From assembly GCA_028554795.2 (NCBI GenBank), contig CM068831.1, positions 29,416,159 through 29,480,158 of the forward strand: a DNA stretch of 64,000 bases. Direction: 5' to 3'. The notes under the pieces were generated by a model. The model was not told where the DNA came from. It did no database searches and saw only the letters and a list, made by a program, of their open reading frames with translations. The first letter of the stretch is position 1. Every line of letters begins with the position of its first letter. This document shows positions 20,087-64,000 of this stretch, in pieces. The DNA is from Sinohyriopsis cumingii. Lineage: Eukaryota > Mollusca > Bivalvia > Unionida > Unionidae. Both the position numbers and the translations under genes were made by a program.

Positions 20087-20102
20087 AGTCCTGAAAAGGG
20101 TT
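20087..20102 (-). terminator. Histone-like 3' stem-loop, copy A cassette 2 (degraded)
   Basis: The minus strand reads AACCCTTTTCAGGACT with the TTTC loop kept but two stem pairs lost, then AACC and a purine-rich CTAGAAAAAAATAC downstream. Homologous in place to the intact hairpin at 51894. Confidence 0.6.
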
Positions 20103-20618: not shown

Positions 20619-20643
20619 GCGCGAACGTGAAGGAAAACATCCT
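20619..20643 (-). promoter_or_regulatory. Cassette 2 promoter block, copy A
   Basis: The minus strand reads GATGTTTTCCTTCACGTTCG, one change from the main-element blocks. About 45 bp further upstream is AACGCGCGGACCTAAAA (plus strand 20688-20704), found at the same distance from the main cassette 2 block (52455-52471). No clear TATA box follows in this copy. Confidence 0.7.
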
Positions 20644-20940: not shown

Positions 20941-20956
20941 AGCCCTGAAAAGGGCT
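20941..20956 (-). terminator. Histone-like 3' stem-loop, copy A cassette 3
   Basis: The minus strand reads AGCCCTTTTCAGGGCT, a perfect 6-bp stem with TTTC loop, identical to those at 51894 and 52773. It is preceded by an A/C-rich flank and followed by ACCTCC and a purine-rich CTAGAAAAAAAATAC. It lies about 24 nt past the stop of the small gene at 20980. Confidence 0.82.
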
Positions 20957-23745: not shown

Positions 23746-23756
23746 TTATAGTGTCT

Positions 23757-50132: not shown

Positions 50133-50653
50133 AATCCTGGTGTGGAGTTATGTATATAGCAATCTTTTCTATGGATTTCTACAAAAAACGTTAACAAGAA
50201 TCTATACACTACTACACAAAAAGCACAATAAATATATATGGTAATATACCTGTCAGGAGAATGTTCATTGAATTTATTTACTTTATTTTGTCTTGGGTTT
50301 TCATGTGTTCCCTTTTTTACTGGGTGCATTGATGGAATAGGTTATGATTAGAGGATGAATTTGGCTGAATATGAACATTTGAAAAAACATCCTATATATT
50401 ACGTCAAAAGAAACTCACCAACCCTATTACAGCCAATCCGTCATTTGTCTCATTTAGTGTCGTCGTGGCTCTATTTGAAACCTGTAGTCCTTTTTCCCTC
50501 AGTCATGTATAATTCTTACGGTTCCGGTTACATCTTGATCAAACGGGTGAAGCAGACGATTTCTTCCGGGAATAACTAACTTTATATATTGCTAATACAA
50601 TAACCGCTACTTCTGCAGCCATTTTCGGGCTGTATTATTCGTAAGTAGTAAAT
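50133..50653. other. Spacer between retroelement and Polinton, no gene
   Basis: No recognisable coding sequence or repeat. Confidence 0.4.
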
Positions 50654-50860
50654 GGGGCCACATTAGGGACAATGGGACTTAGCATTAAAAACACCCCTGG
50701 GCCACTTTAGGGACAATGGAAATTTAACATGGAGAAAAACGCTGGGCCACTTTAGGGACAATGGGAATTTAACATAGAGTTTGGGTCTGTCTAGGGACAA
50801 GGGAAATTAACATGGGAATAGAGTTTGGGTTTGTCTAGGGACAAGATGAATTGAATATGG
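50654..50860 (-). repeat. Polinton terminal-region tandem repeat (~45 bp, five copies)
   Basis: Five units, each with GGGCCACTTTAGGGACAATG or the variant GGGTCTGTCTAGGGACAAG, followed by an ATTTAACAT-type end. The inverse complement of this motif (ATGTTAAATTCCCATTGTCC) is at 23757 and 31010, at the right ends of the older remnants. Opposite orientation at opposite ends is what inverted terminal repeats would give. A (TTTAAA)n patch follows at 50895-50925. Confidence 0.7.
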
Positions 50861-50968
50861 GATTGTTTTAAATTTTTTTTTTAAAACGTTTTTTTAAATT
50901 TAAATTTAAATTTAAATTTAAAAAAGGGTAGGCAATGGAAAGGCTATCTCTTTTCGAGAAATATGGCT

Positions 50969-50984
50969 GGCCCTGATAAAGGCC
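50969..50984 (-). terminator. Histone-like 3' stem-loop, main cassette 1
   Basis: The minus strand reads CCCAAA-GGCCTTTATCAGGGCC-AGCCA: a six-pair stem (one T-G wobble), four-base loop, histone-like flanks on both sides and a downstream CGAAAAGAGATAGC. It is 32 nt past the stop codon of the E/K-rich gene. No AATAAA is seen nearby. Confidence 0.78.
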
Positions 50985-51015
50985 TTTGGGTTTTCTTCTT
51001 CTTCTTCTTCTGCTT

Positions 51016-51405
51016 CTAATTTCTTCTTTTTCTCCACCAAGTTCTTATTTTATCTCCTACACTCTTTCTCTTCTTCTCTTTCTTTTTTTTCTCCTGCTCT
51101 TCTTTCTTCTTCTCTTCCTCCTCTTCTTTCTTCCTCTTCTCATTTTCTTCTTCTTTTTCAATTTTTTCGTTCCATTTGCTTATTCTTATTCTTTCCTCTT
51201 CATCCTCCTTCTCCTCCTTTATCTCTTTCATGACACCACTAATCTTGTCCTTTACCTTTTTTAAGTTATTAATTTCCATCTTTACACGATGGGGACTATA
51301 GGAATAATGGTCTTCAACGAGTCTTATTAACATCTGTTCCATCATTCCTAAGTTGTCTAAAACGTCTTGCAATGTTTGTATTTTGTCCATTTGGTTAGAA
51401 GCCAT
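51016..51405 (-). CDS. Accessory cassette 1: E/K-rich coiled-coil protein, 129 aa
   Basis: The start is taken at ATG 51405, since the shared promoter block and TATA box lie directly upstream of it. The frame is open further upstream only because the promoter happens to be stop-free. Residues 1-60 form a helical domain (LQDVLDNLGMMEQMLIRLVE; SPHRVKMEINNLKKVKDKIS), then come about 50 residues of nearly pure Glu/Lys/Arg coiled coil and a basic end with IRTWWRKRRN. No membrane segment or known domain. A SINE-broken homologue is at 18.9-19.6 kb in copy A. The E/K tail and basic tip suggest a nucleic-acid- or protein-binding scaffold, but that is only inference. Confidence 0.7.
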   Translation of the reverse strand: MASNQMDKIQTLQDVLDNLGMMEQMLIRLVEDHYSYSPHRVKMEINNLKKVKDKISGVMKEIKEEKEDEEERIRISKWNEKIEKEEENEKRKKEEEEEKKKEEQEKKKKEKKRKSVGDKIRTWWRKRRN

Positions 51406-51444
51406 CTTCTTTGTAGGATGGTTTGAACGACGAATACTGTGGGT

Positions 51445-51483
51445 TCTTATAGTGAAAGCGCGGACGTGAAGGAAAACATCCCC
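51445..51483 (-). promoter_or_regulatory. Main cassette 1 promoter: shared block plus TATA box
   Basis: The minus strand has GATGTTTTCCTTCACGTCCG at 51480-51461, then CGCTTTCACTATAAGAACCC, with the ATG 40 nt after the TATA box. The same block with the same TTTCACTATAA continuation is at cassette 2 (52.37-52.41 kb). Confidence 0.8.
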
Positions 51484-51499
51484 TACTTTTCTCATTTCA

Positions 51500-51775
51500 T
51501 ATAATAAAACCCAAACTATACTCTCCACATACGCTAAGAAACAATAAACAAAATCCATAATCTACTATCCACACAATCGTACGTGAGCGGTTACAAAACC
51601 CAAACTATACTCTCCACATACGCTAAGAAACAATAAACAAAATCCATAATCTACTATCCACACAATCGTACGTGAGCGGTTACAAAACCCTAACTATACT
51701 CTTCACATACGCTAAGAAACAATAAAGAAACCCATAATCTACTATTCACACAAACATACCTTAGCTCTTACAAGC
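51500..51775. repeat. ~91-bp tandem repeat upstream of cassette 1
   Basis: Three adjacent copies beginning AAAACCCWAACTATACTCTY and ending near CGTACGTGAGCGG. The third is diverged. They lie between the promoter of cassette 1 and the 3' region of cassette 2 and could be spacer or enhancer-like repeats. Confidence 0.93.
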
Positions 51776-51893
51776 ACCAACACACAAACACATACCCTCA
51801 CACTATCTTAGAAAAGAGTTAGTGTTTATATTCACACTACTCTACCTACACATTGGCAAATTCATGGTTATTTCTTTAAAAAGAGTATTGGGT

Positions 51894-51909
51894 AGCCCTG
51901 AAAAGGGCT
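51894..51909 (-). terminator. Histone-like 3' stem-loop, main cassette 2
   Basis: The minus strand reads AAAAAAAC-AGCCCTTTTCAGGGCT-ACCCA, then ATACTCTTTTTAAAGAAATAACC. Perfect 6-bp stem, TTTC loop, ACCCA flank identical to histone mRNAs, and a purine-rich AAAGAAA about 15 nt downstream. It follows the cassette 2 stop by 28 nt. Confidence 0.85.
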
Positions 51910-51937
51910 GTTTTTTTGGAACTTCATGGACACCTGG

Positions 51938-52318
51938 TTAATGGTGGCACCTTCCAGGCCTGGCGCCGCATATACATCTTATCCCCCAGTTACTTTTTAC
52001 CTTTTGGGGGGAGAGAGCAGAGGCAGGATATGTGGCTTCAGAATCCCAATTTTCGGTTTCTGGGATTCTGAAATTTCTTCTTCTTCTCTCCTTTTCCTCT
52101 TCCTCTTCCTCTTCTTTGTATCTTCTCTCCTCCTCTTTGTATCTTCTTTCCTCTTCTTCTTTATATCTTCTCTCCTCCTATTCTTTGTTTCTTCTTTCCT
52201 CTTCCTCTCTTATCCTTCCCTCCTCCACAATGGCTTCCGCGGCCAGTTCTTTTAATATGCGCCTGGCATATTCCAGATGCACATGAAGTTCCAACAGTTT
52301 CTCCAGTCTCGTGTTCAT
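51938..52318 (-). pseudogene. Accessory cassette 2: E/R-rich protein, one in-frame TAG
   Basis: From ATG 52318 (51 nt after the TATA box) the frame encodes LLELHVHLEYARRILKELAA, then an E/R-rich region with YKEEEERR-type repeats, and ends GARPGRCHH at TAA 51938. Copy A keeps the same ending. A TAG at codon 47 (52180-52178) interrupts the frame at the start of the repeats, so either a 46-residue product is made or the gene is dead. The helical N-terminus followed by a charged repeat tail resembles cassettes 1 and 3, which suggests one gene family. No known domain. Confidence 0.6.
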
Positions 52319-52368
52319 TTTTGGTGTTGATCAATCAACAAGGGTAGTTGGACTGCCGAACGAGTTTC

Positions 52369-52408
52369 AATTTATAGTGAAAGCGCGGACGTGAAGGAAA
52401 ACATCCCT
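52369..52408 (-). promoter_or_regulatory. Main cassette 2 promoter: shared block plus TATA box
   Basis: The minus strand has GATGTTTTCCTTCACGTCCG, then CGCTTTCACTATAAATTG; the ATG is about 50 nt downstream. A second GC motif (AACGCGCGGACCTAAAA, plus strand 52455-52471) lies 47 bp further upstream, as in copy A. Confidence 0.82.
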
Positions 52409-52772
52409 TAAAAACATAAAATTGATCTTACCTACATCATGACCAAAACACAACAACGCGCGGACCTAAAACAAACACTCACTCACATTTTATGCTACCC
52501 ATCACTATTTTAAAATTTTTTATAAATCACTTCAATAGACTATCCACATACGCAAAGCAATCCAATCTAACCCCAAATTTACACCTCAAACACCAAAAAA
52601 AAGACATCATTTTAATCTACTATCCATACCAACTTACTTAACCACTTACAAACACAAACACACAAACACATACCCTCACATTTTTTAAAAAAAGAGTTAG
52701 TGTTTATTTTCACACTACTCTACCTACACACATTGGCAAATGGATTGTTATTTCTTTTCTAGAGCATTGGGT

Positions 52773-52788
52773 AGCCCTGAAAAGGGCT
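52773..52788 (-). terminator. Histone-like 3' stem-loop, main cassette 3
   Basis: The minus strand reads AAAAAAAAC-AGCCCTTTTCAGGGCT-ACCCA, then ATGCTCTAGAAAAGAAATAAC. Identical hairpin to 51894 and 20941; the downstream AGAAAAGAAA could pair with a U7-type CUUUU. It is about 30 nt past the stop of the poly-Q gene. Confidence 0.86.
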
Positions 52789-52817
52789 GTTTTTTTTGTT
52801 TGCTATGGCATTCTTTT

Positions 52818-53192
52818 TTAGTTTCTAAGAATGCGATGTCCTCTGAGGATAGACTTTCTGGCGATAGGTCTGCTTCTTCGAAAAGAGAAGAAGAACTCTT
52901 TGGTGTCGATACGACAATCGACAAAGCCTCTGTCAGCTTCAGGTTGCTGCTGCTGTTGTTGTTGTTGCTGCTGTTGCTGCTGTCTCTGAAGTCTGTACTT
53001 CTCTGTCCATTCTTCTTTTTCCCTGTTCATTTCTTCTCTGAAGAGCTCTTCTATCAGGTCTTCAGTGATTTTTAACATTCTCACATTCTCTATTTCTTCT
53101 GGCTTCGGTATCAGACTGTGTCTGACCCTATGCAAATTCACGTAGGCGCGGACGTGAAGGAAAACATCCCCCACACGGTTTTTGAGTCGCAA
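52818..53192 (-). CDS. Accessory cassette 3: poly-Q protein, up to 124 codons
   Basis: Encodes YVNLHRVRHSLIPKPEEIE and RMLKITEDLIEELFREEMN, then a run of 13 Gln and a charged C-terminus. The open frame has no ATG at its beginning: the shared promoter block is fused directly onto the conserved YVNLHRV coding start and is itself read as GDVFLHVRA. The first ATG is the Met of RMLKI (53078). In copy A a true ATG sits just before the conserved start, so the promoter fusion here seems to have removed it. Ends in a histone-like hairpin. Function unknown. Confidence 0.6.
   Translation of the reverse strand: MRLKNRVGDVFLHVRAYVNLHRVRHSLIPKPEEIENVRMLKITEDLIEELFREEMNREKEEWTEKYRLQRQQQQQQQQQQQQQPEADRGFVDCRIDTKEFFFSFRRSRPIARKSILRGHRILRN
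53146..53172 (-). promoter_or_regulatory. Shared promoter block at cassette 3 (no TATA)
   Basis: The minus strand has GATGTTTTCCTTCACGTCCG, then CGCCTACGTGAATT. The block is perfect but the TATA part present at cassettes 1 and 2 is missing, and coding sequence follows at once. Confidence 0.72.
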
Positions 53193-53299
53193 CGTTTAGT
53201 GAGTGTCATGAGAGGGATAGCAAGAAATGAAAGAGCATCAATCCAACATTCTTATAGCTAAACAAAAGACAAAGGCATTTTTTTCAAAACACAACATTT

Positions 53300-53305
53300 T
53301 TTATT
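53300..53305 (-). terminator. AATAAA polyadenylation signal after the capsid gene
   Basis: The minus strand reads TGAATAAAAAATG about 110 nt past the capsid stop. It shows that core genes use ordinary polyadenylation, unlike the cassettes. Confidence 0.6.
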
Positions 53306-53413
53306 CAAAAATCACTTAACACTAAACAACAACAACTCTAACATTTTTTAACAATAATCCAACACTAAAAGTTTCTCCACTAGGTAAAGAGGGATAACAG
53401 TCTTCCATGGTTT

Positions 53414-54727
53414 CTAGTAATCTAGGATGACTTCTCTCAAACTGTTGATTTCTATGGTATTATCGAATTCTGCATACAGGATGACGTTCACCGTTTCATC
53501 AGGGTCTCGGTTTGCAAACTGAATTTCCACAAGAATCTGGCCGGATTTTATAGGGTGGAAATGTCCCTCGTCGCTGCCTTGGTCTGGAGTGAAATCGAAA
53601 GCCCACAAAGCGTAGCCTCCTGCATAATCCTCGTACGTAATACCGTGACTGGTATTGGTTCCTAACTGTCCGGTGGCTTCGTACAGGGACAAATACGATC
53701 TCAAATAATTCTTCTTGGTAAAATCAGGTTCGAAAGGTCGGGTACACAAGGTCTTGCCATCGCGGCTGACTTCGATTTTGGACACGCCAAAGTGTTGAAA
53801 GTAGAAAGGATTTTTTTCGGCAGCTCCATAGAAGGCTGTATTCTCGACGATACCAACGATGAAACGTTTGGGTAACTGTCCTTGGAACAGATGATCTTCG
53901 ATCATGGATCGCTGTCCCTTGGGAATGGTTTAGGTTTTCACTTCCACGCGTCGTATGGGATACTTGGCAGTCGTTCTGCTCAACGTCTGACTGATGTCGT
54001 TTCCCACTTTAGGTAACACTTCCACACGGCGTACGTAGAGTCTGGCTTCTAGGATTTTGGTTTTGTAACCGTCACTATCAGCCATCAAATGGAAAGCGGC
54101 ACTGCTACGATTCAGTCTCAGGCGGACATCCACCCCGTTCAGCAAATACTTTTCTTGCAACCACATGTCCAAATGCAAACGATCCATCAGTTCTAAACTT
54201 GTGTCGGCTCCCGTGATTCTCTTTCTTCGTTCTAGAAATCCATCATTGTTGTCTTTCTTTTCATCAGTTTCCAATATTTCAAACTTGGTAGGTTCGTCAG
54301 CTTCCCATACCACACAGGCATTGAGATGAGTGTTCTTGGCATCTATTCCGTACGTCAAGAGATTTTCCAGGTAGGCACGACAAGGGTAAGTATCCATGCT
54401 GCTACTGACCAGTTTGTTATTCAAGTACAAGTCCACTCCACTGAACAAGGAATGCATGAAATTGTTGACGGGAGCTACTGCTTCATCGTCTATAGCACCT
54501 CCAGTCTTATCTAGAATTTTGACTTTCAGGTACAAGTAACTGCTATTCAGATCGATGTAATCTTCGGGCTGTCCTTTGATTTCAAACTCGATGGGAGCGG
54601 AATCGGTCAGTGAGGAGACGGGGTGAAATTCCACCCACTGGGTTTCTTGCATCGTCATCATCTTGGGGGGCATGGCAAACAGATCCAGTTCCGTCTTGGA
54701 ATAAGCGCAAGATTCTCGGTGCATCAT
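53414..54727 (-). pseudogene. Polinton major capsid protein (double jelly-roll), one in-frame TAA
   Basis: The minus-strand frame from ATG 54727 contains FHPVSSLTDSAPIEFEIKGQ, YIDLNSSYLYLKVKI, LFSGVDLYLNNKLVSSSMDT and, in the second part, PKRFIVGIVENTAFYGAAEK, NYLRSYLSLYEATGQLGTNT and EFDNTIEINSLREVILDY. This is the Polinton/adintovirus major capsid family (the family of C. elegans F54H12.2-like proteins), about 437 codons in all, which forms the capsid trimers. A TAA at 53932-53930 splits it into 265- and 163-codon pieces. The copy A remnant has a sense codon there, so the stop is a later event in this copy. It follows the small basic virion-type gene and precedes cassette 3. Confidence 0.92.
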
Positions 54728-54743
54728 TTTTTTGTCTCTTTTC

Positions 54744-55160
54744 TCAATAATCGAAAACGTCTAAGTCTCGAACGGTTCTTCTTTTCTTGGCGTTTCTCGC
54801 TTGAAGTCTGGTGAAAGGGTGTTTTCTTCGTCGTCTCTTTCTGCCTTATCCTTGCTGAATGCCTGACTCGGTAGCGTGCAGGGCATTTATAGGTGTTTCT
54901 CGTTGGCCTAAAATGTCTTTGCCCGTTTGCAGCAAGACATTTTTGCCTGCCCTCATGAAGGCTTCTTTAGGGTTTTGTTTGTCGATGATGACATTTTGGA
55001 GAAATTCTTTGCCTTGCGTCAGTGCCGCATCTTTCAAGGCGTGCAATCCGCGTGTCACCATCGGTTTCAACACCGGGGCCACCGAACGAAAGGCCAATTT
55101 TAACATATCTCCTAAGCCGTGTCCTCGCTGTCGAGCAACCCCTCGGTACACTGGATACAT
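54744..55160 (-). pseudogene. Small basic virion-type protein, one in-frame TAA
   Basis: From ATG 55160: a Gly/Arg-rich start (YRGVARQRGHGLGDMLKLAF), amphipathic helices (VAPVLKPMVTRGLHALKDAA), then ESGIQQG and a TAA at 54848-54846. The same frame continues with a strongly basic KRRRRKHPFT and KKRRTVRDL segment to a TGA at 54746-54744 (138 codons in all). Small proteins with this design sit beside the capsid genes in many Polintons and recall adenoviral minor core proteins. That role is inferred from position and composition. The start is 4 nt after the penton-like gene's stop. Confidence 0.7.
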
Positions 55161-55163
55161 GAC

Positions 55164-56087
55164 TTAAGAGTCGTGAGAGAACCGTTTTCGAAAATGGAGT
55201 TTCACCGTGACTTTTCCTTTGGTGAATGGAATATTTTGTCCCAGATCTCCTTTTATAGCAATGTTGACCGTGTCCAAATACGACTTACTGACAGGCAAAT
55301 AGTGAGGATGGACAAATTCGCGGTGGACGTGGTAAGTGTTTCCACCTTCCTCGTCAGTGTTCGTGGCAGAATCCACTTTGAAAGGAATGACACGCAGTAA
55401 CGGTACGGAGGTGTGTCTCACCACGTTGTACTCCACCACATCAGAATACACGAACATCAAATTCAGTCCTTGGTTCAGTTCTACCGGGGCACGAAATAAC
55501 TTGCTAAAAGACTCGTTGTCGTAAACGATGGGTAATTCGTTTTTCTTGAGCATGGCCTCTCTCATGTCCATGTCTCCGCCCAACATGTCAAACAATTCAG
55601 GACAAAATAAAATGGACATGATTTTACTCCGTTCAAATTTCATCGAGAAGCGACGAGCTGCTTTGTGGTACTCCATGGTGACACTTTTGTTGACATGCTC
55701 CAAAGCTTTCAGAAACACGACATTAAACCTGGAGGCTATGGTGCTGACCAAATGTTGACCACTAAAATAATAGCCTGGGGGAATGAACAAGTGATAGGTG
55801 GTGTACTTTTGTGTACGGGTTTTCTTGTCATATTTGACATTGCTATCCATCCACTGTTGCATTTGCTCGTCATGAACTTCCACATCAAAAAAATTTTGAT
55901 TGGGAAGGACATTGAGGACTTGGGTCGGGTGAATGATTTCTACTAAAGCCACTTCCCAATGGGCTTCGTGATCTAATTGGATGGCCTGAGGTAATTTGGC
56001 CGTGTAACAGCACAACGTTTTGTTGGGAAACACCTCCATGGAACTGTCACTGGGTAAAGTTAAGTAAAATTGGCTTTGGTGACTCAT
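55164..56087 (-). CDS. Polinton penton-like minor capsid protein, 307 aa
   Basis: An intact frame from ATG 56087. The N-terminus FYLTLPSDSSMEVFPNKTLC, LPQAIQLDHEAHWEVALVEI and IIHPTQV, and later YHLFIPPGYYFSGQHLV, match the single jelly-roll minor capsid (penton) family of Polintons, with the expected length of about 300 residues. Its ATG overlaps the TGA of the two-TM gene (ATGA), so translation or transcripts are tightly arranged. The product would sit at capsid vertices. There are no breaks, unlike the capsid gene downstream. Confidence 0.86.
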   Translation of the reverse strand: MSHQSQFYLTLPSDSSMEVFPNKTLCCYTAKLPQAIQLDHEAHWEVALVEIIHPTQVLNVLPNQNFFDVEVHDEQMQQWMDSNVKYDKKTRTQKYTTYHLFIPPGYYFSGQHLVSTIASRFNVVFLKALEHVNKSVTMEYHKAARRFSMKFERSKIMSILFCPELFDMLGGDMDMREAMLKKNELPIVYDNESFSKLFRAPVELNQGLNLMFVYSDVVEYNVVRHTSVPLLRVIPFKVDSATNTDEEGGNTYHVHREFVHPHYLPVSKSYLDTVNIAIKGDLGQNIPFTKGKVTVKLHFRKRFSHDS

Positions 56088-56497
56088 AATTCCAGAGTTC
56101 TGTGGCTGTCCGAGGGGTTAGTGGACGTCAGAGGCGTGTCTCCGTCTAAAATGGGGTTCTGGTTGTGGTTGAAGTGGTGACTGGCACTGGCACTGGACAC
56201 AAGGTTCCCGTGGTTCCCGTTCGAGGTGAATTTCAGGTTGGGATTAGGAAGCAGGTAACCGATGCAACTGCTCAATAAAATGGTCCACAATTGCTTGTCT
56301 CCTTGTTGCAAACTCAAATTGGCGATGGCTGCCCCGATGACACAATACACCACGAAGATTTGGCAGAAAAAGACGATTTGCGTTTTAGGCACACGTTCTC
56401 CACACCACACCCACAAGGGTTGTTTTTGTAAATCTTGCACAGAAGAACTAGGTGAAGGAGGAGTGGTCGACGTAGCTGCGTCTGTGTGAAAAGGCAT
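56084..56497 (-). CDS. Two-TM membrane protein, 137 aa (Polinton core neighbour)
   Basis: ATG 56497 to TGA 56084. Two hydrophobic stretches: TQIVFFCQIFVVYCVIGAAI (about 39-58) and LWTILLSSCIGYLLPNPNL (about 70-88), with a short NLSLQQGDK turn between. The N-terminus is Ser/Pro/Thr-rich and the C-terminus is polar with His and Asn. Small membrane proteins of this form are found next to the penton gene in Polintons; the function is not established. The start lies within the end of the integrase frame, and TATAAAAAG is 22 nt upstream, probably too close to be its TATA box. Confidence 0.7.
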   Translation of the reverse strand: MPFHTDAATSTTPPSPSSSVQDLQKQPLWVWCGERVPKTQIVFFCQIFVVYCVIGAAIANLSLQQGDKQLWTILLSSCIGYLLPNPNLKFTSNGNHGNLVSSASASHHFNHNQNPILDGDTPLTSTNPSDSHRTLEL

Positions 56498-57612
56498 GAT
56501 GGTCGCTTCTTTTTATAGTCGATGACTTGCGAAGCGTCGATCCAAGAATCAAAACTGGGTGGATATCCTTTCCAACGTACTTTGACTTCTTTGACACGTC
56601 GTTTGCCCACTTTACGGGTTCTGCGTTCGAGAATGCTTTCGATGTCGTACACGTCGTCTTCTTTTTTGGTGACACGTTGTAACTCGGGCAAATAAAACGT
56701 TCCTTTGAGCACTTCTCCGTTCATGTCTTCCAATTTATAGACGGCAGGATGACGGCCATGCACTCGTCCAGTGACGCGAAACAATTCGGTCGTCCAGTTA
56801 GGTAAGTAACCTTTGTCGAAAGTGCGTTTGGTTTTGCCAATGCGCACCCAATCTCCTACGGCCAACATTCCACTTTTCTTGGGGACAACCCTCGTCGGGG
56901 ACGTACCAAACAGGCGCTCAAACACCAACACTTCGTTGTCGGGAGTCACGTCTTGCGGGGCACGTCCGATGCTTCGATGGTAAGATTGGTTGTACGCTTG
57001 CACCAGGTGCGGTAAGATGTCGATGTACTTCAGAGTGTGGTGATGCGTAAAATATTTCCACATGCGTTCTTTCAAAGTGCGTTGAAAACGTTACACGATG
57101 CTGGCTTTGGTTTCGGGATTCTCGGTGGTAAACAAATGAATGTCACGTTTCTTTAATTCTTTTTGGAAAGCTTGGTTCAGAAATTCGGTGCCTTTGTCCG
57201 TTTGCCATCGAAGAGGGTGACGACCGCTTTGTTTCAACACTCGTTGCAGGGCTCGCACTAACTCGCTGCTCGATTTGGAAGTCAAGGGCACGACCCAGGC
57301 AAATTTGGAAAAGACGTCGATGACACAAAACAAATATTTGTAGCCACGATTGTAGCTGGCCAAATGAGAGACATCGGCTAAATCGGCTTGCCATTGATGA
57401 TCGATGCCTTCCACTCGGGTGTGACTTCTGGCAAACTTGCGTCGAATGGGTTTGTGTAAAGTGTAGGTAGCTTGTTCTTGTAACCATCGTTGCACTTGAG
57501 GTAAACAGAGACTTTTCAGTTGCGTTTTGGCAGCACTATACAATTTTTGAACTCCTGCGTAACCTGCAGGATGGGAGGGATCGTAGTAAATGCTGGCTAA
57601 GACTTTTTCCAT
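56314..57612 (-). pseudogene. Polinton integrase (retroviral-type DDE, chromodomain), stop at catalytic Glu
   Basis: Start at ATG 57612, since the frame further upstream has no ATG. The zinc-type and core regions are followed by WQADLADVSHL (first Asp), YKYLFCVIDVFSKFAWVVPL and RWQTDKGTEFL (second Asp). The core then reaches PETKASIV, where TAA (57093-57091) stands at the position of the third catalytic acidic residue, and the frame continues RFQRTLKERMWKYF. The C-terminal part has a chromodomain (IESILERRTRK, VKVRWKGYPPSFDSWIDASQ), which would target integration to chromatin marks. The last ~60 codons overlap the next gene and are probably not original. The integrase would insert the element into the host genome; this copy cannot make a complete enzyme. 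Confidence 0.9.
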
Positions 57613-57632
57613 TTTTTGTGTTGGTTGGTGTG

Positions 57633-58268
57633 TTAATAAGGCACCCACTCTTGGAGGATGCTAATCTTTTTCTCTTGGGGTATTTTCTTGGATTGCAATG
57701 CTTTGCGTGTGCGACCGGCAATAGGTGTTGAAGAGGAGGAGGATGTCTGAGCGGGGGATATCGGTTCTTGTTTCACTTCTGTCTTCACTTCTATCTTCAC
57801 TTTCTTTTTCTCTTGTGAGGAAGAAGGGGTGGCCATCATCTTTTTAATCCATCCAATTCTGGAGGTAGGTGGTGTTGTTAACTTGCGTACTTTTTCTGGT
57901 GGAGTTTGAAACCCTTCTTCTTCTTCTTCTTTTCCTTTTTCTGTCTTGGTCACTGGTACTGGTACTGGTACTGGTGATGGTGCTGGACTTTTCATCAAGG
58001 TCTTAAAATCTTTCAGAGTGGGTAGAGCTGTTTCGTCTAAAGCTTTCTGGTGAAAGAGTTGCAGTCGTTGCAAGAGTTGACCGTACTTTTGCGATTTTTC
58101 TGTTTCGGACAAATCTTGGCGATACATCAAGGACTGCAATTCGTGTTGTAACTGGGACATCTCGCTCAAATTGGGATTGGGAGGTAAATGCGGGGTGTGT
58201 TGTTCTTGCCACCGATGGTATTCCATCCATCGTTTGTAAGGCACTAAAGCTAGTTTTCGTCCTTCCAT
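57633..58268 (-). CDS. 211-aa Polinton protein with SUMO-consensus cluster
   Basis: An intact frame from ATG 58268, 50 nt after a TATA-like box, ending 20 nt before the integrase ATG. The N-terminus RKLALVPYKRWMEYHRW and a Gln/Leu-rich helix (LQHELQSLMYR) resemble a conserved Polinton protein of unknown role found next to the integrase. The centre is Pro-rich with a VPVPVPV run, a Glu run and TPPEKVRKL. Residues 157-172 (VKIEVKTEVKQEPISP) hold three successive matches to the SUMO acceptor pattern (hydrophobic-Lys-x-Glu), the last extended as the phosphorylation-dependent form. It is probably nuclear. Confidence 0.7.
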   Translation of the reverse strand: MEGRKLALVPYKRWMEYHRWQEQHTPHLPPNPNLSEMSQLQHELQSLMYRQDLSETEKSQKYGQLLQRLQLFHQKALDETALPTLKDFKTLMKSPAPSPVPVPVPVTKTEKGKEEEEEGFQTPPEKVRKLTTPPTSRIGWIKKMMATPSSSQEKKKVKIEVKTEVKQEPISPAQTSSSSSTPIAGRTRKALQSKKIPQEKKISILQEWVPY

Positions 58269-58310
58269 GGGGTTGTCAGGGGTCGATTCTGAGATCTTGG
58301 AACTTCCGAG

Positions 58311-58323
58311 GCCTTTTTATCTT
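58311..58323 (-). promoter_or_regulatory. TATA-like box of the 211-aa gene
   Basis: The minus strand reads AAGATAAAAAGGCCTC, 45-55 nt before ATG 58268, inside the stop region of the upstream gene. Confidence 0.6.
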
Positions 58324-58703
58324 GCTCCCACCAGTCCTCCCAACATGGTTCCCAAGACTCCTTTCAGTATGGGGCCTAACAAGAGAGGTAAAATACCTCC
58401 ACGTTGCACTAACATCTTCTTTTTTTGACGAATGGGAATTTTCTTTTGAACCATTTGGCGAGGAACGTGACGATGTTTGCCTAAGCATTGTTTCTGGTGT
58501 TTGGACAAAGGTATCGTGCCTTTCAAAACGTTCAAACAACATTCGCACACGGTATCGATGACCTCTTTGGAGGCCGTTTGAATGAGTTTTTATCGTAGTG
58601 GTGGAGAAGCTTTGGACAGGACAGATAACATGTCCCCATGTTTGGCTAAACGTGGTGGCAGTCCTTTCCTTTTCTTTCCTTGGGGTTTTCTGGAGGGTGA
58701 CAT
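58317..58703 (-). pseudogene. Basic/Zn-motif/hydrophobic small protein, one in-frame TAA
   Basis: ATG 58703 lies about 55 nt after a TATA box. The first part is basic (SPSRKPQGKKRKGLPPRLAK) and ends at TAA 58592-58590. The same frame continues at once with KLIQTASKEVIDTVCECCLN, a Cys-Cys...His...Cys cluster (CECC, SKHQKQC), another basic stretch and a hydrophobic, Gly-rich end (GGILPLLLGPILKGVLGTML). The hydrophobic end could disrupt or bind membrane, like minor capsid lytic proteins, but that is inference. No family assigned. Homologous copies would show whether the TAA is a real break. Confidence 0.6.
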
Positions 58704-58753
58704 CTTTGAGTCTTCAGGAGCACCAAAAAACACTGATACCCCGACTTGGTCAC

Positions 58754-58770
58754 AGGCCTTTTTTATACTG
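58754..58770 (-). promoter_or_regulatory. TATA box of the Zn-motif gene
   Basis: The minus strand reads CCAGTATAAAAAAGGCCT. Its TAA is also the stop codon of the upstream basic gene. Confidence 0.68.
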
Positions 58771-59704
58771 GAACGCGTCGCCACTGATTGTCTTGACGTC
58801 GTATTAGTTTGAGGACAGGCATGACACGTCGTGCAGGGGTACGTAACGGACTAAATCGAGCCAGTTCTTGCTTGGACAAATCCAGTAAACTTTGTAACAT
58901 GCCCGATCTTTCTTGAACTTTGATTTTGGGAGAAGGTACTTTGTGAGCAGCAGCCACTGCCACTAAATTGGAAGATCCTGCCACTGGGGAAGTTCTTTTG
59001 GGGGTCATCAACGGAGAAGTTCTTGGTGTGATCAACGTCTCCAAGTACTCTTCAGTTCTGGGTGTCATTAACGGAGAAGTGGACAAACGTGAGGCTGCCG
59101 GAGACGCAGTCACCGCCGTGGCAGGTCGTGGTTTGCGAGTGTAAGGTTGCGTCCTGGCCGAAGTGCCTCTCTTGCGACTAGTTTTCTGTGGACTTTTCTT
59201 TTTCTGGGGACATTTTCTCTGTTTCTTTTTCTGGGGGCTTCTTTTCTTTCTCCGGGGTGGTGGTGTCTGGTCAGAGGAGGGTCCTGCCACTGGAGAAGTT
59301 CTCCTTGGGGACCTGGTCTTTTTCTTCTTGGGGCTTCGTTGGACTTTTGTCTTGGGTATAACTTTGGGGGCATTAGGATCCCATCTTAAGAGTGAGTGAA
59401 TGATGACCCCTCCTAGAGTACCGCTCCCTCCAGGTTTCAAAATGATTTGGTTTTTGGTTTGAGTGTCGATGAGGGGATCGGCCAGTTGGACCAAAGCGAC
59501 TTTGTTTCGATCGAAAAAGCGTTTGGTTTAATGAGGAATCTGAATGATTCCTTGGAGTAATTGACGTGCCGTCACCGTGAACCATCGTAAGACTTCTTTG
59601 AGACTAGCTTCTAAGACACGAGCTCGTGTTTATGGATCTTTTTCTCGACTGATGCCATACAAGGCACGAATCAATTTGACGGGAAGATGCGACTGAAGGG
59701 ACAT
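58763..59704 (-). pseudogene. Basic (SP-K/R)-rich DNA-condensing-type protein, two in-frame TAAs
   Basis: The coding frame starts at ATG 59704, passes TAA at 59632-59630 and TAA at 59530-59528, and is then open for 244 more codons to 58763. The N-terminal part (MSLQSHLPVKLIRALYG) and FFDRNKVALVQLADPLIDT flank the stops. Further on come IILKPGGSGTLGGVIIHSLL, a Lys/Arg/Pro-rich core with repeated SP(K/R)K-type motifs (KVQRSPKKKKTRSPRRTSP), and repeated TSPLMTP units. This composition suits a virion DNA-binding core protein; homology to a named family is not established. The open 3' part begins at TTG 59494. Confidence 0.65.
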
Positions 59705-59762
59705 CATGCTCGCACTGAGAGTGAGACAGACGAGAAAGGGTCTGAGGTTTTAATAGATTTTT

Positions 59763-60506
59763 TTATGTGGAGTGAAATGAAGTCGAGGACGGAGACGTGT
59801 ACAGGACAGGCCCTCCGTCTTGGCACCAGTGATGAAACAAGTGGGTACGAAATCGCAAATCCTCGGGAGTCGTAGGTTTCAAATCGACGAGTAAATAGGC
59901 GTGTGGAGTTTGAGTGGCATCGTCGTACGCCTGAGTCAGCCAAGGCGTTCCTAACTGTTTGGCTAAGACTTGCACTTGCGATTTATCTCGAGGGCTTTTA
60001 AACAAGACCACGTAATGCGCATTGAGACTGATGGTGCGATGGGCTTTACTTTGTTGAAACAAATTTTGGGTGATGTAAACGACACTGGCATTACGGTGAT
60101 GCCCTTTGCGCGTGAACCACAGTTTAATTTCTTCTTCGTCTTCTCCTAACATGTCGTCAAAAATGACCAAATGGGTTTGACGGGAGTCAGAGATGATGCC
60201 GTCGTCTTCTTTAGGAATGCCTTCCACAAACACGATGGAATCGCCTTGACTTTCTCGCAAGAGGCTGTACGCCGATTGCCACTCTTTGTAACACCACACG
60301 ATTCGTTGAGGGGGTCGATCGATCAAATGATGTTTATGTTCGATCAAACGTTTGACGAATTCGGTTTTGCCTGAACCGCTAGGTCCAGCAATGAGCATGT
60401 TAAAGGGATGGCGAAGATACAAAGCCTCCCAACTGGCACGATCTAAGTGTTCGTCGATGACTTTGACAGTAGACGAAGAGGGAGCAGAGACAGCAGAAGT
60501 AGCCAT
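59763..60506 (-). CDS. Polinton DNA-packaging ATPase (FtsK/HerA type), 247 aa
   Basis: An intact frame from ATG 60506. Walker A GPSGSGKTEF (residues 41-50), Walker B HLVIFDDML (112-120) with two acidic residues, and a following SVVYITQN (141-148) with the polar sensor. The length of about 250 residues matches Polinton/A32-like packaging ATPases, which drive genome entry into the capsid. A good TATA box lies 47 nt before the ATG. The 3' end is close to the basic protein gene. No breaks, and codon use is GC-richer than in host flanks. Confidence 0.92.
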   Translation of the reverse strand: MATSAVSAPSSSTVKVIDEHLDRASWEALYLRHPFNMLIAGPSGSGKTEFVKRLIEHKHHLIDRPPQRIVWCYKEWQSAYSLLRESQGDSIVFVEGIPKEDDGIISDSRQTHLVIFDDMLGEDEEEIKLWFTRKGHHRNASVVYITQNLFQQSKAHRTISLNAHYVVLFKSPRDKSQVQVLAKQLGTPWLTQAYDDATQTPHAYLLVDLKPTTPEDLRFRTHLFHHWCQDGGPVLYTSPSSTSFHST

Positions 60507-60552
60507 TGTGTGAGAAATGTCACTTGTGACACGAAAACAAACAAGACAAGAG

Positions 60553-60560
60553 TTTATATA
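60553..60560 (-). promoter_or_regulatory. TATA box of the ATPase gene
   Basis: The minus strand reads AAAGTATATAAACTCTTG, ending 47 nt before the ATG at 60506. Confidence 0.72.
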
Positions 60561-60577
60561 CTTTATTTCAGAACACG

Positions 60578-60583
60578 TTTATT
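60578..60583 (-). terminator. AATAAA signal after the 60.6-kb small gene
   Basis: The minus strand reads TTCAATAAACGTG, 8 nt past the stop at 60591. A second AATAAA overlaps the ATPase promoter at 60563-60568. Confidence 0.6.
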
Positions 60584-60590
60584 GAATGTT

Positions 60591-60897
60591 TCAAACATGA
60601 ATACGAAAGACAAAAATACATAAAAACCAAAGGCTTAAGTACAAGAATAAAAGGCACATGATAACCATGAACGTGGAATAAACACAAGTGTCTGTACAAC
60701 ATGTTTTGGGTAAAGTTCTAACCAGTTCTATAGTAGGGGGTAAGGTCACACAAGTGTCCTGCCGAAAGGGTCTTGTTCTGGCACCGTCACTAACACGGGT
60801 TGAAAAGTAACTTTTTTCCTTGAATAACTCTCGTGCATACTGGGCCACCTCTTGGGTCCAAGCCAAACCAATCTGGTTTCTTCTTCGTCAACGACAT
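60591..60897 (-). pseudogene. Small Cys-containing membrane-type protein, start frame uncertain
   Basis: A strong TATA box at 60.95 kb and an ATG at 60897 define the gene, but the ATG frame closes after 36 codons. The long frame (60866-60591, no ATG) encodes LAWTQEVAQYARELFKEK, a Cys pair region (LPKTCCTDTCVY) and a hydrophobic C-terminus (FMVIMCLLFLYLSLWFLCIF) like a membrane anchor. A one-base shift near 60.88 kb would join the two. AATAAA follows directly. Not recognised as any known family. Confidence 0.5.
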
Positions 60898-60923
60898 GGT
60901 AAGTTACTTCAATGAACAATGAA

Positions 60924-63900
60924 CTATCGATCTTGCCTAGGGTTCCTTTTTATATACAGACCAATACCGACGTGACCGTACGGCAACGTAAAGTGATTAG
61001 GAAGTCGCACTCGCTTCTGGTATACAATTTGATAGACTTTTTCCAAGGGTCGACTGACGATGTGGTGAGTGGGTAAACGTACAATCTTGTTCGGTTGATA
61101 CGTGGTCACTTTAAAGTTTCCATCCTCTCCCGATTGCAAGGCTTCTTTCAATACCCCAAAGTTGACCACTCGACTGGTTCGATAATTCAGAGTCAGTCCT
61201 TTCACTTTGCACGTCGTGTGCACTTCTCCTTGTTTGTCCCGGTATTCGTAGCCGTAATTTTTGGGGCCGCCACTGACGAAACTTAGAATCTTGTCGTCGG
61301 CATGCTCGTCTGTCCAGGCTCCTAAACGGTCTCCTTCGATGTCAGGGTGATGTTGAATCGGGTGATGGATGTAAATGCAACTGTCCGTGTCAAAGTACAG
61401 GACGCGTTCTTCTAACAGTTTTAAAGCTTCGTACAATTTTAAGCGAGCATGAGCTGTCACGTAAGCCGCAATGATGACATTTCCAAAAGGGTCGTCTTCT
61501 ACAAAGTCCAGATCTTCTTCGTAATTGACCAAGATCAAATCCTCTCGAACGACGTCCACGTGTTTCATGTATTTGGTTTTGTCGTGAATCATCTGGAAGT
61601 AGCGGGAAGGTTCTGTCAAATATTCCGTCTTGGGTAAACACGGTCGTTGTGCCATTTTACCCCACAAGCAATTTAACATCACTTTGGCAAGCGATCGCCT
61701 GCCTTCGTTTTTTTCGATGTGGTCTAAAGAGATGCCTTCTTGTTCGTAGTATTTCTCTTTGAATTGTATTTGGTCTTCGGGAGTGTGACACCAGGAAGGA
61801 TAGCCGCTGGCTTCTTGTTTCAGTTTCAAAAAGGCATCCACGTAGTCGGCGAAAATGCCTTTCTGAGTAGGGTCACCCTTGTGGTACTGTTGTGTCTTGG
61901 GAAAGTGGCAAATTTCGTACACTTCTAACAGTTGGTATCCCATGTCCAGAGCTTTGAACAATTCCACGCTGACCCAGGTTCCCGTCAAGGCACGTTCTTC
62001 CTGGCTGTGATGGCAAGGTTGGTCCTGGTTGCACGTTTGGACACAAGTACGGCACAATGGAAACATCAGTTTCCCTTGACAATGGTGAGGTAAGACGGGA
62101 TGGTATAGGTTCGTGGGAGGCAAAACTTTACACTTGATCAAGCCTTCGTATTGTCGAATGTTTTTCAGGTCGATGTGTTCCGTCAGCAATTGCGGGTGCC
62201 CTACGGGAAAGCGACAATATTTGCACACGTAGGGATACAACGAACACACGTCCAAGTATTTGATTTCTTCTCCTTTCTCTTCGTCGGTTTGGTACAGCAA
62301 ACAGGTGGCATTGGTCCTTCCTCCGTACAAACTATCCCTCGGGATCAACGGGTCCATGAACTGGTAACTTTCCACGAGGCGTTTAAACTCGGGATCGGTT
62401 TTCATACGGTGATCGTACTCGTGTTCCCACATCTCCACCACTTGGTATCCTTGCTGTTCTAACTTTAGGCACCGCTGACAAGTGTCCTTGTACAAGTTTT
62501 CCATGGTTCGTTGTAAAAACTGATTTTTAGTGTCACGGTCAGGGTAACAGACGGAACATCCATGAAATAAGCAACCGTTAAACTCGTACACGATCTTGGG
62601 GTTTTCTAAGTCCCAGCGATCGACCGAATACGTTCCGATGGTCTTTTCGCCTCCTTCGTTGCGGGCATGCTGAATCCATTTGTCTTCCTTGTCGCACAAG
62701 TAATGTAACCAGCGTAGGGCTTTGACCGAGTATTGACGTTTGACAAAGTGGGTCGTTTGAGGACTGATGACAGCCACGGTGTTTTCAGGCATGAATCGTT
62801 GGCGGTACACCAAGGAACACGCTTTGGCAATGGTGCAAGCTTCTTTCAAAGGATCGACCCCTCCGTGTTCCATGAACAGTTCTCGAAATTTTCCACAGCA
62901 ACGTCGTAAAATGTCCACGTCGGAACGACAATACTTTAGCATTTCTTCCTGAAAGTCGAAAGGGTCCGAGGCGTGAGCCTGGTACCAAGCGTAGAAAGCT
63001 TCTCGTTGTTCGGTACGCATGTTGTCGGGGTCGTAATAGTGAGCCTCAGGCAAATGGGGTAGAACGGCGTGTTGATTGGCTTCCGTATTGAAAAAGTGAG
63101 GAAAGTACCCTTTAGCCATTTCTGTCATTCCAAACGTTTTAGGCATTCGGCTCAAAGGCATGGCCAAGTAACTCATCGAATCTTTAAACTGCACTTGTCC
63201 CACTTGCATGAAAATGATTTTGGCTCCGTTCAAAGTCACTTTAGGACGTTCGGTGCCTTGTTCCGTATAGTATCTGAGAAGAAACTGTCCATCGTATCCG
63301 GAGAAATTGTGAGCCATCACCGTGGCATGACGATGACAATCTCCGTAACGTTCGATGTCCTCTTGGCTCCACGTCTTGTCGATGGGGTCTAAGACCCATC
63401 GAGCGAAATCGGCTAACGTGTTCGGTCCCCGAAAGATTTTTTCACGTCCTCCAGGAATCTTGCTGCAGTGAGGGCAATGACTGAAGATAGGTTCTTGAAT
63501 GCACTTCTCGCACGCTCGATGAACCACGCAGAAATTAGGAATGTGAATGCCGGTCTCTTGCATGCATTCGAAATCGAAAAAGATGAAATTGCTTTTCTTC
63601 TTGTGACCGTCCTCTTTCTCTGGTGGGGGTTGGTATTTTTGCACGTAGCATTGGTGTTCCAAGTCGACGATGTGGTGACAAATGTGAAATTTTTTCTTTC
63701 CTCGACATACGTGTGCCTTGGTACTGTTGGTGCGTATGCCTTGTCTACACGTAGGGCACAATCTCAGGAGTTGACAAGCACATTTCTTCTGTGAACCTTG
63801 TGTTTTCAAATGTTGTTGGTAACATGTAGGGCTGACAAACGTGCGCAGACAAGTCGAACAAGGCACTGGTTCTTCGCTCAGACAGGGTGGAGAGGCCAAA

Positions 63901-64000
63901 CATCCTGGGCATTTCCATCCACAATGCTTGTGTTGCTCTCGATTGTTATAACCATAATCACATTTCTCACAGTAATATCTGTATCCCAGGAATCCGGTGA
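60924..64000 (-). CDS. polB: Protein-primed DNA polymerase B (Polinton type), N-terminus beyond window
   Basis: Replicates the element by protein priming. The frame is open from the window edge to TAG 60921. The TTG at 63899 is not the start: at least 33 more codons precede it, with CEKCDYGYNN, HKHCGWKCPGC and other Cys/His pairs forming an N-terminal zinc-binding cluster. Counting from 63899, exonuclease motifs are FFDFEC (107-111), NFSGYD (198-203) and YCRSDVDIL (323-331). YEFNGCLFHGCSVCYP (438-453) is a block conserved in this polymerase family. Polymerase motifs follow: A, LDVCSLYP (549-556); B, KVMLNCLWG (739-747); C, YFDTDS (835-840); then KVKG (898-901). All key acidic residues are present over 1,024 codons without a stop, so this gene could still be functional or is recently inserted. 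Confidence 0.95.
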   Translation of the reverse strand, partial: TGFLGYRYYCEKCDYGYNNREQHKHCGWKCPGCLASPPCLSEEPVPCSTCLRTFVSPTCYQQHLKTQGSQKKCACQLLRLCPTCRQGIRTNSTKAHVCRGKKKFHICHHIVDLEHQCYVQKYQPPPEKEDGHKKKSNFIFFDFECMQETGIHIPNFCVVHRACEKCIQEPIFSHCPHCSKIPGGREKIFRGPNTLADFARWVLDPIDKTWSQEDIERYGDCHRHATVMAHNFSGYDGQFLLRYYTEQGTERPKVTLNGAKIIFMQVGQVQFKDSMSYLAMPLSRMPKTFGMTEMAKGYFPHFFNTEANQHAVLPHLPEAHYYDPDNMRTEQREAFYAWYQAHASDPFDFQEEMLKYCRSDVDILRRCCGKFRELFMEHGGVDPLKEACTIAKACSLVYRQRFMPENTVAVISPQTTHFVKRQYSVKALRWLHYLCDKEDKWIQHARNEGGEKTIGTYSVDRWDLENPKIVYEFNGCLFHGCSVCYPDRDTKNQFLQRTMENLYKDTCQRCLKLEQQGYQVVEMWEHEYDHRMKTDPEFKRLVESYQFMDPLIPRDSLYGGRTNATCLLYQTDEEKGEEIKYLDVCSLYPYVCKYCRFPVGHPQLLTEHIDLKNIRQYEGLIKCKVLPPTNLYHPVLPHHCQGKLMFPLCRTCVQTCNQDQPCHHSQEERALTGTWVSVELFKALDMGYQLLEVYEICHFPKTQQYHKGDPTQKGIFADYVDAFLKLKQEASGYPSWCHTPEDQIQFKEKYYEQEGISLDHIEKNEGRRSLAKVMLNCLWGKMAQRPCLPKTEYLTEPSRYFQMIHDKTKYMKHVDVVREDLILVNYEEDLDFVEDDPFGNVIIAAYVTAHARLKLYEALKLLEERVLYFDTDSCIYIHHPIQHHPDIEGDRLGAWTDEHADDKILSFVSGGPKNYGYEYRDKQGEVHTTCKVKGLTLNYRTSRVVNFGVLKEALQSGEDGNFKVTTYQPNKIVRLPTHHIVSRPLEKVYQIVYQKRVRLPNHFTLPYGHVGIGLYIKRNPRQDR
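60946..60958 (-). promoter_or_regulatory. TATA box of the small gene after polB
   Basis: The minus strand reads CTGTATATAAAAAGGAACC, about 50-60 nt before ATG 60897 and inside the end of the polymerase gene. Confidence 0.72.

What the first reader, a model, noticed from the sequence alone, without database searches (positions are those of the whole stretch)
50969..52788. Histone-type 3' stem-loops end each accessory gene of a Polinton
Each of three small minus-strand genes is followed within about 35 nt by a 16-nt hairpin: AGCCCTTTTCAGGGCT twice (51894, 52773) and GGCCTTTATCAGGGCC once (50969). Size (6-bp stem, 4-nt loop), TTTC loop, A/C-rich 5' flank, ACCCA 3' flank and a purine-rich element (AGAAAAGAAA, AAAGAAA) about 12-15 nt on all match replication-dependent histone mRNA ends processed by SLBP and U7 snRNP. 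Only the first stem pair (A-T rather than G-C) departs from the usual pattern. No AATAAA follows, whereas core genes of the same element have AATAAA. I know of no Polinton described with this. It would tie expression of these genes to S phase and give non-polyadenylated mRNAs.
Basis: partly seen in the sequence, partly recalled or inferred. Interest (0 to 1): 0.92.

Follow-up and report, generated by a model that had tools for sequence, protein, structure and literature searches.

The report
Virus-like element wearing histone-gene control signals
In a freshwater mussel, a very abundant virus-like mobile element carries small genes whose ends, and in most cases starts too, copy the control signals of the mussel's own histone genes, so it has probably tied part of its own gene expression to the moment when host cells copy their DNA.

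Summary
The hairpins are real histone 3' ends, and the finding is larger than reported. The element is a full-length Polinton (50644 to window-equivalent 67286; 16,643 bp; 6-bp target duplication) in a unionid mussel. A covariance model built only from the host's five histone genes finds the three window hairpins at E 7e-10, 6e-7 and 1e-5; the gene-1 hairpin outscores host H1. The downstream element (CTMGAAAAGA, usually 10 nt past the stem) is the host's own.

The same three genes carry the host histone promoter box: 23 of 25 bases match host H2B and H1; a second box matches H4 at 15 of 15. Of 74 hairpins in 26 sampled loci, 72 have the box upstream and 72 the downstream element. The right end adds two more hairpin genes, without the box. 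An older broken copy in the window keeps the hairpins in order, one exact and two decayed. AGCCCTTTTCAGGGCT occurs 21,286 times in the genome; its reversed control, 0.

Not shown: tail-less RNA, S-phase expression, SLBP binding, U7 pairing (no U7 gene found). Ten searches of an open-licence library listed no earlier description.

The parts
50644..64000 (-). Polinton, left end at 50644; runs past the window to window-equivalent 67286 (16,643 bp). Core genes on the minus strand
   Evidence: Ends AGTAGTAAATGG / CCATTTACTACT with TTCGTA on both sides; TIR 354 bp, 96% identical; Pfam DNA_pol_B_2, rve, Chromo, Pox_A32
50638..50643 (.). 6-bp target-site duplication TTCGTA (left copy)
50644..50993 (+). 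Left terminal inverted repeat, contains the gene-3 hairpin and its downstream element
52773..52788 (-). Histone-type stem-loop of gene 1, AGCCCTTTTCAGGGCT
   Evidence: host-only model R1 52.1 bits, E 7.1e-10
52747..52764 (-). Histone downstream element of gene 1, CTCTAGAAAAGAAATAAC
   Evidence: host H2B CTCTAGAAAAGATG
51894..51909 (-). Histone-type stem-loop of gene 2
   Evidence: R1 40.4 bits, E 6.3e-7
51867..51885 (-). Downstream element of gene 2 (altered in this copy)
   Evidence: other copies have CTCTAGAAAAGA
50969..50984 (-). Histone-type stem-loop of gene 3 (mutated here; GGCCCTTTTCAGGGCC in 21 of the 24 sampled loci in which it was found with up to 2 mismatches), inside the TIR
   Evidence: R1 35.3 bits, E 1.2e-5
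50944..50958 (-). Downstream element of gene 3, CTCGAAAAGAGATAG
53146..53169 (-). Histone-type promoter box GGATGTTTTCCTTCACGTCCGCGC before gene 1
   Evidence: matches host H2B and H1 promoters
52383..52406 (-). Histone-type promoter box before gene 2, followed by TTTCACTATAAA
52457..52471 (-). Second, H4-type box TTTTAGGTCCGCGCG before gene 2
   Evidence: 15 of 15 to host H4 promoter
51458..51481 (-). Histone-type promoter box before gene 3, followed by TTTCACTATAAG
52818..53145 (-). Gene 1 (poly-Q, charged protein, about 118-121 aa where intact elsewhere); start region missing in this copy
51920..52318 (-). Gene 2 (E/R-rich, 98-128 aa where not truncated elsewhere); in-frame stop in this copy; left limit approximate
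51016..51405 (-). Gene 3, 129 aa K/E-rich, open in this copy
20941..20956 (-). Hairpin of gene 1 in the older, broken Polinton; identical to the young copy
   Evidence: (27.8 bits), (33.7 bits, E 3.2e-5)
20087..20102 (-). Decayed hairpin of gene 2 in the older Polinton, with downstream element
   Evidence: (21.8 bits, E 0.032)
18857..18872 (-). Decayed hairpin of gene 3 in the older Polinton (GGCCCTATTCAAGGCC after CCCAAA), beyond a tRNA-derived SINE inserted in gene 3
   Evidence: (22.1 bits, E 0.027)
20628..20642 (-). Promoter box of gene 2 in the older Polinton
19678..19692 (-). Promoter box of gene 3 in the older Polinton

Best explanation
The accessory genes at both ends of this unionid Polinton are built as replication-dependent histone genes without histone proteins. 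SHOWN: the three left-end genes have, in order, a promoter box shared with the host's H1 and H2B (and before gene 2 also H4) genes, an uninterrupted ORF where the copy is intact, a stem-loop 14-50 nt after the stop of ORFs of usual length (host 27-38), and the host's histone downstream element about 10 nt later; two right-end genes have the 3' half only. INFERRED: host factors that switch on histone genes at the start of S phase (NPAT pathway, a HINFP-like factor; recalled) transcribe them; SLBP binds the stem-loop, U7 snRNP pairs with the downstream element, CPSF73 cuts between, and the mRNA ends in the stem-loop without a poly-A tail, being made and kept only while DNA is copied. That would give a DNA element which needs host replication a burst of accessory proteins just when the cell is permissive.
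For: Host-only covariance model R1 finds the window hairpins (52.1, 40.4, 35.3 bits; E 7e-10, 6e-7, 1.2e-5), both right-end hairpins (49.9, 46.2 bits), and gives 74 matches in 26 sampled loci at 27.8-52.8 bits; host H1, a training sequence, scores 51.8. Downstream element at 72 of 74 hairpins (up to 1 mismatch), exactly 10 nt on in 61; host H4, H2B, H3 10 nt, H1 11, H2A 12. Promoter box (up to 4 mismatches) upstream of 72 of 74 hairpins; 22 of 23 loci with three hairpins have it at all three. Box 23 of 25 to H2B and to H1, best of 60 shuffles of the histone unit 17; H4-type box 15 of 15, best shuffle 12. In the window ACGTCCGC occurs 3 times, all at hairpin-gene promoters (expected 0.35; 1 of 100 shuffles reaches 3), GGATGTTTTCCTTCA 5 times, all at hairpin-gene promoters of two elements (expected 0.23; 0 of 100 shuffles reach 5). 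BLAST hits between host histone unit and sampled loci fall at H4, H2B, H1 promoters and H4, H2B, H2A, H3 3' ends; 9 of 372 fall elsewhere (H2B coding region). Hairpin 1 is unchanged in a copy 69-78% identical in its longer aligned stretches. First stem pair A-U in genes 1 and 2, G-C in gene 3 and host.
Against: No RNA data. No U7 snRNA gene found in the host by Rfam (its controls silent) or by patterns, so pairing is untested; the host SLBP search did not complete. Genes 1 and 2 have A-U, not G-C, as first pair, which none of the five histone genes in L043 has. 25 of 74 hairpins have AATAAA within 120 nt, so polyadenylated forms are possible. The best match of the downstream element in the histone unit (15 of 17) and of the stem-loop (14 of 16) are each equalled by the best of 60 shuffles, so these two matches alone are not significant; the combination and position are. 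No BLAST hit at the H1 3' end. The two right-end genes lack the promoter box. The sample was chosen by exact hairpins 1 and 2 and comes from one contig. In gene 1 the downstream region is no better conserved than a stretch further on (0.955 against 0.971). Window copies of genes 1 and 2 are damaged.
Confidence: 0.87

Rival explanations
1. The signals were captured from histone genes but are not used as such: transcripts of living elements are polyadenylated at AATAAA further on, and the hairpins are leftovers or only stabilise RNA.
For: AATAAA within 120 nt downstream of 25 of 74 hairpins, and 64 nt after the window's first.
Against: Parts not used in choosing the copies are well conserved: downstream elements 0.992 mean column identity in 20 copies, where 30-nt bins range from 0.75 to 0.98; gene-3 hairpin exact in 21 of 24. 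Host H4 also has AATAAA past its hairpin.
Confidence: 0.08
2. The hairpins act mainly as DNA or RNA signals of the element itself (TIR structure, replication, packaging) or as decoys that soak up SLBP, not as mRNA ends.
For: One hairpin sits in each TIR; 21,286 exact AGCCCTTTTCAGGGCT in the genome could titrate a host factor.
Against: Three of the five lie outside the TIRs; they follow the stop codon of the gene on the same strand at histone-like distance in ORFs of usual length (14-50 nt; host 27-38), though the 137-aa right-end gene is about 170 nt away; the histone promoter box has no place in this reading.
Confidence: 0.04
3. Chance or low-complexity resemblance; an ordinary hairpin terminator.
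For: Rfam alone leaves the window's three hairpins below its gathering score.
Against: Host-only model E-values down to 7e-10; stem-loop plus element 0 in 40 shuffles; 21,286 copies against 0 for the reversed control; promoter match.
Confidence: 0.01

Closest known systems
Metazoan replication-dependent histone genes (Rfam RF00032 3' end; SLBP, U7 snRNP)
   Same: Short genes with uninterrupted ORFs; stem-loop soon after the stop, downstream element at the same spacing; same promoter boxes as H1, H2B, H4 of this host
   Different: Products are not histones; the genes belong to a mobile element; genes 1 and 2 have an A-U first stem pair
Polintons / Mavericks (adintovirus-like elements of animals; family features recalled)
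   Same: PolB, rve integrase with chromodomain, A32-type ATPase, adenain-like protease (weak match), capsid-protein homologues, TIRs, 6-bp duplication
   Different: Accessory genes at both ends carry host histone-type 3' ends, three of them host histone-type promoters; my searches listed no such description
Viral histone genes (bracoviruses, giant viruses, recalled; PMC9145170, searched for five terms only)
   Same: Virus-like DNA touching histone biology
   Different: Those take the histone protein; this element takes the regulation and leaves the protein. The paper's held text has no occurrence of stem-loop, polyadenyl, Maverick, Polinton or S phase

Membership tests
Replication-dependent histone 3' end (SLBP/U7 type) | 6-bp stem, 4-nt loop, U-rich loop, G in second pair, A-rich 5' flank | tested here: met
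   second pair G-C in 71 of the 73 hairpins aligned (23 of 24, 26 of 26, 22 of 23); G7 is the base described as contacted by SLBP Arg181 (PMC10388802, passages)
Replication-dependent histone 3' end (SLBP/U7 type) | Score above Rfam gathering threshold | tested here: inconclusive
   Window hairpins below (32.7, 29.7, 24.7 against 34); 4 of 14 in six other loci above (35.6)
Replication-dependent histone 3' end (SLBP/U7 type) | Purine-rich downstream element as in the host's own histone genes | tested here: met
   72 of 74; host sequences
Replication-dependent histone 3' end (SLBP/U7 type) | Complementarity of the element to host U7 snRNA | tested here: inconclusive
   U7 gene not found
Replication-dependent histone 3' end (SLBP/U7 type) | mRNA without poly-A tail, S-phase abundance | not testable with these tools
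   no RNA data
Host histone promoter class | Shared box at promoters of H1, H2B, H4 | tested here: met
   23/25, 23/25, 15/15; no match seen before H3 in the printed 180 nt, H2A has an inverted weaker form (20/25)
Polinton / Maverick | PolB, rve integrase, packaging ATPase, capsid protein, protease | tested here: met
   Peptidase_C5 match weak, below cut-off; capsid protein by homologues only, no Pfam match
Polinton / Maverick | TIRs and 6-bp target duplication, about 15-20 kb (recalled) | tested here: met

The most novel reading that the evidence does not exclude
A virus-like mobile element has taken over the whole control programme of host histone genes, promoter and 3' end, for accessory genes at both of its ends (three with both halves, two with the 3' half), giving tail-less, S-phase-limited mRNAs; with thousands of copies it may also load the host's histone processing machinery (SLBP, U7, histone locus bodies) and has kept the package through at least two diverged lineages.
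Probability: 0.65. Interest if true: 0.94.

Novelty: new variant of a known kind. Interest (0 to 1): 0.9.

Why it matters
As far as I know, replication-dependent histone genes are the only animal genes whose mRNAs normally end in this stem-loop without a poly-A tail (recalled). A mobile element that uses the same start and end signals for unrelated proteins would show that this programme can be transferred to other genes, offer a natural test of which parts suffice for S-phase control, and suggest how integrating DNA viruses of animals time their genes to host replication. It also makes open questions testable: what the accessory proteins do, and whether over twenty thousand hairpins affect host histone supply.

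Tried and rejected
Relatives in IMG/VR: none with the capsid protein (one sequence and an alignment), PolB, ATPase or accessory protein, nor with two stem-loop patterns. Two bacterial bins hold distant Polintons (L001, L002; 44% capsid identity) without a Histone3 match, but their accessory regions are short or decayed, so this tells nothing either way.

U7 snRNA of the host: the Rfam model found nothing, with its 14 controls silent. Pattern 1: 20 hits against 37 for the reversed control; the best-looking pair (L049, L050) has an open frame encoding similar membrane-protein-like stretches (read by eye) and was rejected. Pattern 2: 32 hits against 20, several of them one repeated sequence; of the 24 examined none was convincing as U7, by eye, on its 3' hairpin and flanks; 8 were not examined there. 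U7 stays unfound.

Considered and rejected: that the hairpin is a plain terminator; that AATAAA separates core from accessory genes. HINFP as the binding factor is a recalled resemblance; the motif was not found in print; PMC5283814 (passages) says only that HINFP is enriched near human H4 and H2B start sites.

Literature: ten searches of the held open-licence library, seven on whether this is known or on Polintons, viruses, mussels and histone ends and three on the promoter factor. Their listings, capped at 10 or 20 papers (of 819, 268 and 3,089), show no Polinton or virus with histone-type 3' ends. Papers opened, passages only: PMC7026596, PMC10388802, PMC5283814, PMC11351757, PMC9145170 (no passage matched), PMC8097293.

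Full report
OBSERVATION. Over the whole window Rfam's Histone3 is the only family besides two microRNA models (mir-297, mir-1277) with E below 0.1, and it hits all three plus a fourth place, 20916-20961. All four lie below the gathering score.

ELEMENT AND HOST. Minus-strand genes from right to left: PolB (DNA_pol_B_2, 1e-42), A32-type ATPase, integrase with rve and, in the next ORF, a chromodomain, structural genes, capsid protein, then the accessory genes. The capsid ORF (53930-54727) has 383 homologues at E up to 1e-3; of the 120 listed, the named ones are molluscs (Mercenaria, Crassostrea, Ostrea, Littorina), a ribbon worm (Lineus) and a bacterial bin. The stretch beyond the window was fetched (L045): the element ends at window-equivalent 67286, with 354-bp repeats 96% identical and the duplication TTCGTA. 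A receptor gene at 34885-36060 is 90% identical to Sinanodonta woodiana and 91% (over 74% of its length) to Potamilus streckersoni, so the host is a unionid mussel. The genome is 2.9 Gb; AGCCCTTTTCAGGGCT occurs 10,516 + 10,770 times, its reversed control 0 + 0.

A SECOND COPY. At about 18.8-24 kb lies an older, broken Polinton, 69-78% identical to the young one over the five longer aligned stretches. It keeps hairpin 1 exactly (20941-20956), and decayed hairpins 2 (20087-20102) and 3 (18857-18872), in the same order, the third beyond a SINE inserted in gene 3. The two decayed ones reach only E 0.03 with the host model, so position and flanks carry that reading.

HOST HISTONE GENES. A search with H4 gave 114 matches, many in tandem units of about 8.27-8.29 kb. 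One unit (L043) holds H4, H2B, H2A, H1 and H3. Their 3' ends: stems GGCCCT/AGGGCC in four and GGTCCT/AGGACC in H1; AAAC 5' flank in four; downstream element CTAGAAAAGA in H4, H2B, H3, H1 and CCGAAAAGGA in H2A; stop to stem-loop 27-38 nt. The Polinton has AGCCCT/AGGGCT (genes 1, 2) or GGCCCT/AGGGCC (gene 3 in most copies, both right-end genes), and CTAGAAAAGA or CTCGAAAAGA.

TEST WITH A HOST-ONLY MODEL. R1 was built from the five host ends and nothing else. It finds the Polinton ends in the window, at the right end and in the sampled copies with the scores given above. A regular-expression count in the same 26 loci is also 74; the two lists were not compared one by one.

PROMOTERS. Upstream of genes 1-3 stands GGATGTTTTCCTTCACGTCCGCGC, often followed by TTTCACTATAA or a close form. 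Host H2B has TGATGTTTTCCATCACGTCCGCGCT, host H1 GGATGTTTTCAATCACGTCCGCGCT, host H4 TTTTAGGTCCGCGCG; the last stands letter for letter before gene 2 of the window. H2A has an inverted, weaker form (20 of 25); H3 shows none in the 180 nt printed. In the sampled loci 72 of 74 hairpins have a box (up to 4 mismatches) between them and the preceding hairpin or the start of the stretch; the two without are in L010 and L018. A TATAA, TTTAA or TATAT starts 6 nt after the box in 63 of the 75 boxes that have one within 20 nt. The resemblance to the binding motif of HINFP, a histone H4 regulator, is recalled and untested.

SAMPLE AND ITS BIAS. Of the 100 places listed, all on contig C1, I analysed 6 distinct loci given by the tool and 20 pairs that I chose because two hairpins lay under 1 kb apart. 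Hairpins 1 and 2 are therefore selected to be exact, except the second hairpin in the first six loci. Not selected were hairpin 3, the downstream elements and the promoters. Hairpin 3, sought with up to 2 mismatches, is seen in 24 of 26 loci (in L009 and L022 the stretch ended first), exact in 21. One of the 24 was dropped from the pair counts because its stretch was short. Downstream elements: 72 of 74; mean column identity 0.992 at both elements in 20 copies, where 30-nt bins range from 0.75 to 0.98. In one search the gene-1 downstream region (0.955) does not exceed every neighbour (0.971 at +46 to +65), so conservation alone is modest evidence in these young copies.

RIGHT END. L045 holds two more hairpin genes: a minus-strand ORF of 137 aa with a hairpin at window-equivalent 65868-65883, about 170 nt after its stop, and a plus-strand ORF of 78 aa with a hairpin at 66950-66965, about 27 nt after its stop, in the right TIR. 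Neither has the promoter box (sought with up to 5 mismatches). So five accessory genes have histone-type ends, and neither Rfam (window) nor R1 (window and L045) finds one on a core gene.

PROTEINS. Where intact, the sampled loci encode proteins of about 118-121, 98-128 and 126-129 or 194-198 aa, highly charged, gene 1 with a poly-Q stretch; several ORFs are truncated or shifted. The gene-3 slot holds one of two different ORFs between the same ends. No Pfam family above cut-off for one example of each. The 198-aa form has nine homologues (51-62%) on short unnamed contigs. Their function is open.

READING. The simplest account is that the element captured, or evolved by copying, host histone control regions and keeps them on the accessory genes near its left end, with the 3' half also at its right end. 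What is shown is shared sequence at matching positions; use by SLBP, U7 and the S-phase machinery is inferred from that identity. Direction of transfer (host to element) is inferred from the fact that the host's histone genes share these signals among themselves.

Noticed in passing
window 18800-24000: Second, older, broken Polinton on the minus strand with the same gene order where it can be compared; a tRNA-derived SINE interrupts its gene 3 (about 19000-19290).
   Followed up: partly
just downstream of the histone downstream elements, e.g. window 52725-52745: A further block (ATTTGCCAATGTG) recurs after the downstream element in genes 1 and 2, in altered form also in the old copy; no function known to me.
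   Followed up: no
L005, L006, L011, L013, L014, L018, L024, L025, L028, L029 gene-3 slot: The gene-3 position holds one of two different ORFs (about 128 or about 198 aa, some truncated) between the same promoter and hairpin, as in an exchangeable cassette.
   Followed up: partly
L045 3124-3700: Plus-strand ORF with CCHC knuckles, interrupted in this copy, runs towards the right-end minus-strand hairpin gene.
   Followed up: no
window 48509-49394: Two minus-strand ORFs, one with a CCHC knuckle and one that looks like an aspartic protease region, just left of the Polinton; looks like a retroelement remnant.
   Followed up: no
window 34885-36060: Uninterrupted QRFP-like peptide receptor gene, 90% identical to Sinanodonta woodiana.
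   Followed up: yes
L001, L002: Animal-type Polinton DNA sits in bacterial genome bins (a Breoghania bin and an Escarpia endosymbiont bin), probably contamination.
   Followed up: partly
G000 places, e.g. L066, L075, L078: TCTTTTCTCTATAAATTTTGTCTTG recurs at many places in similar surroundings; looks like a dispersed repeat.
   Followed up: no
window 50969-50984 and L045 4950-4965: Within one element the left TIR hairpin is mutated and the right TIR hairpin is intact.
   Followed up: yes
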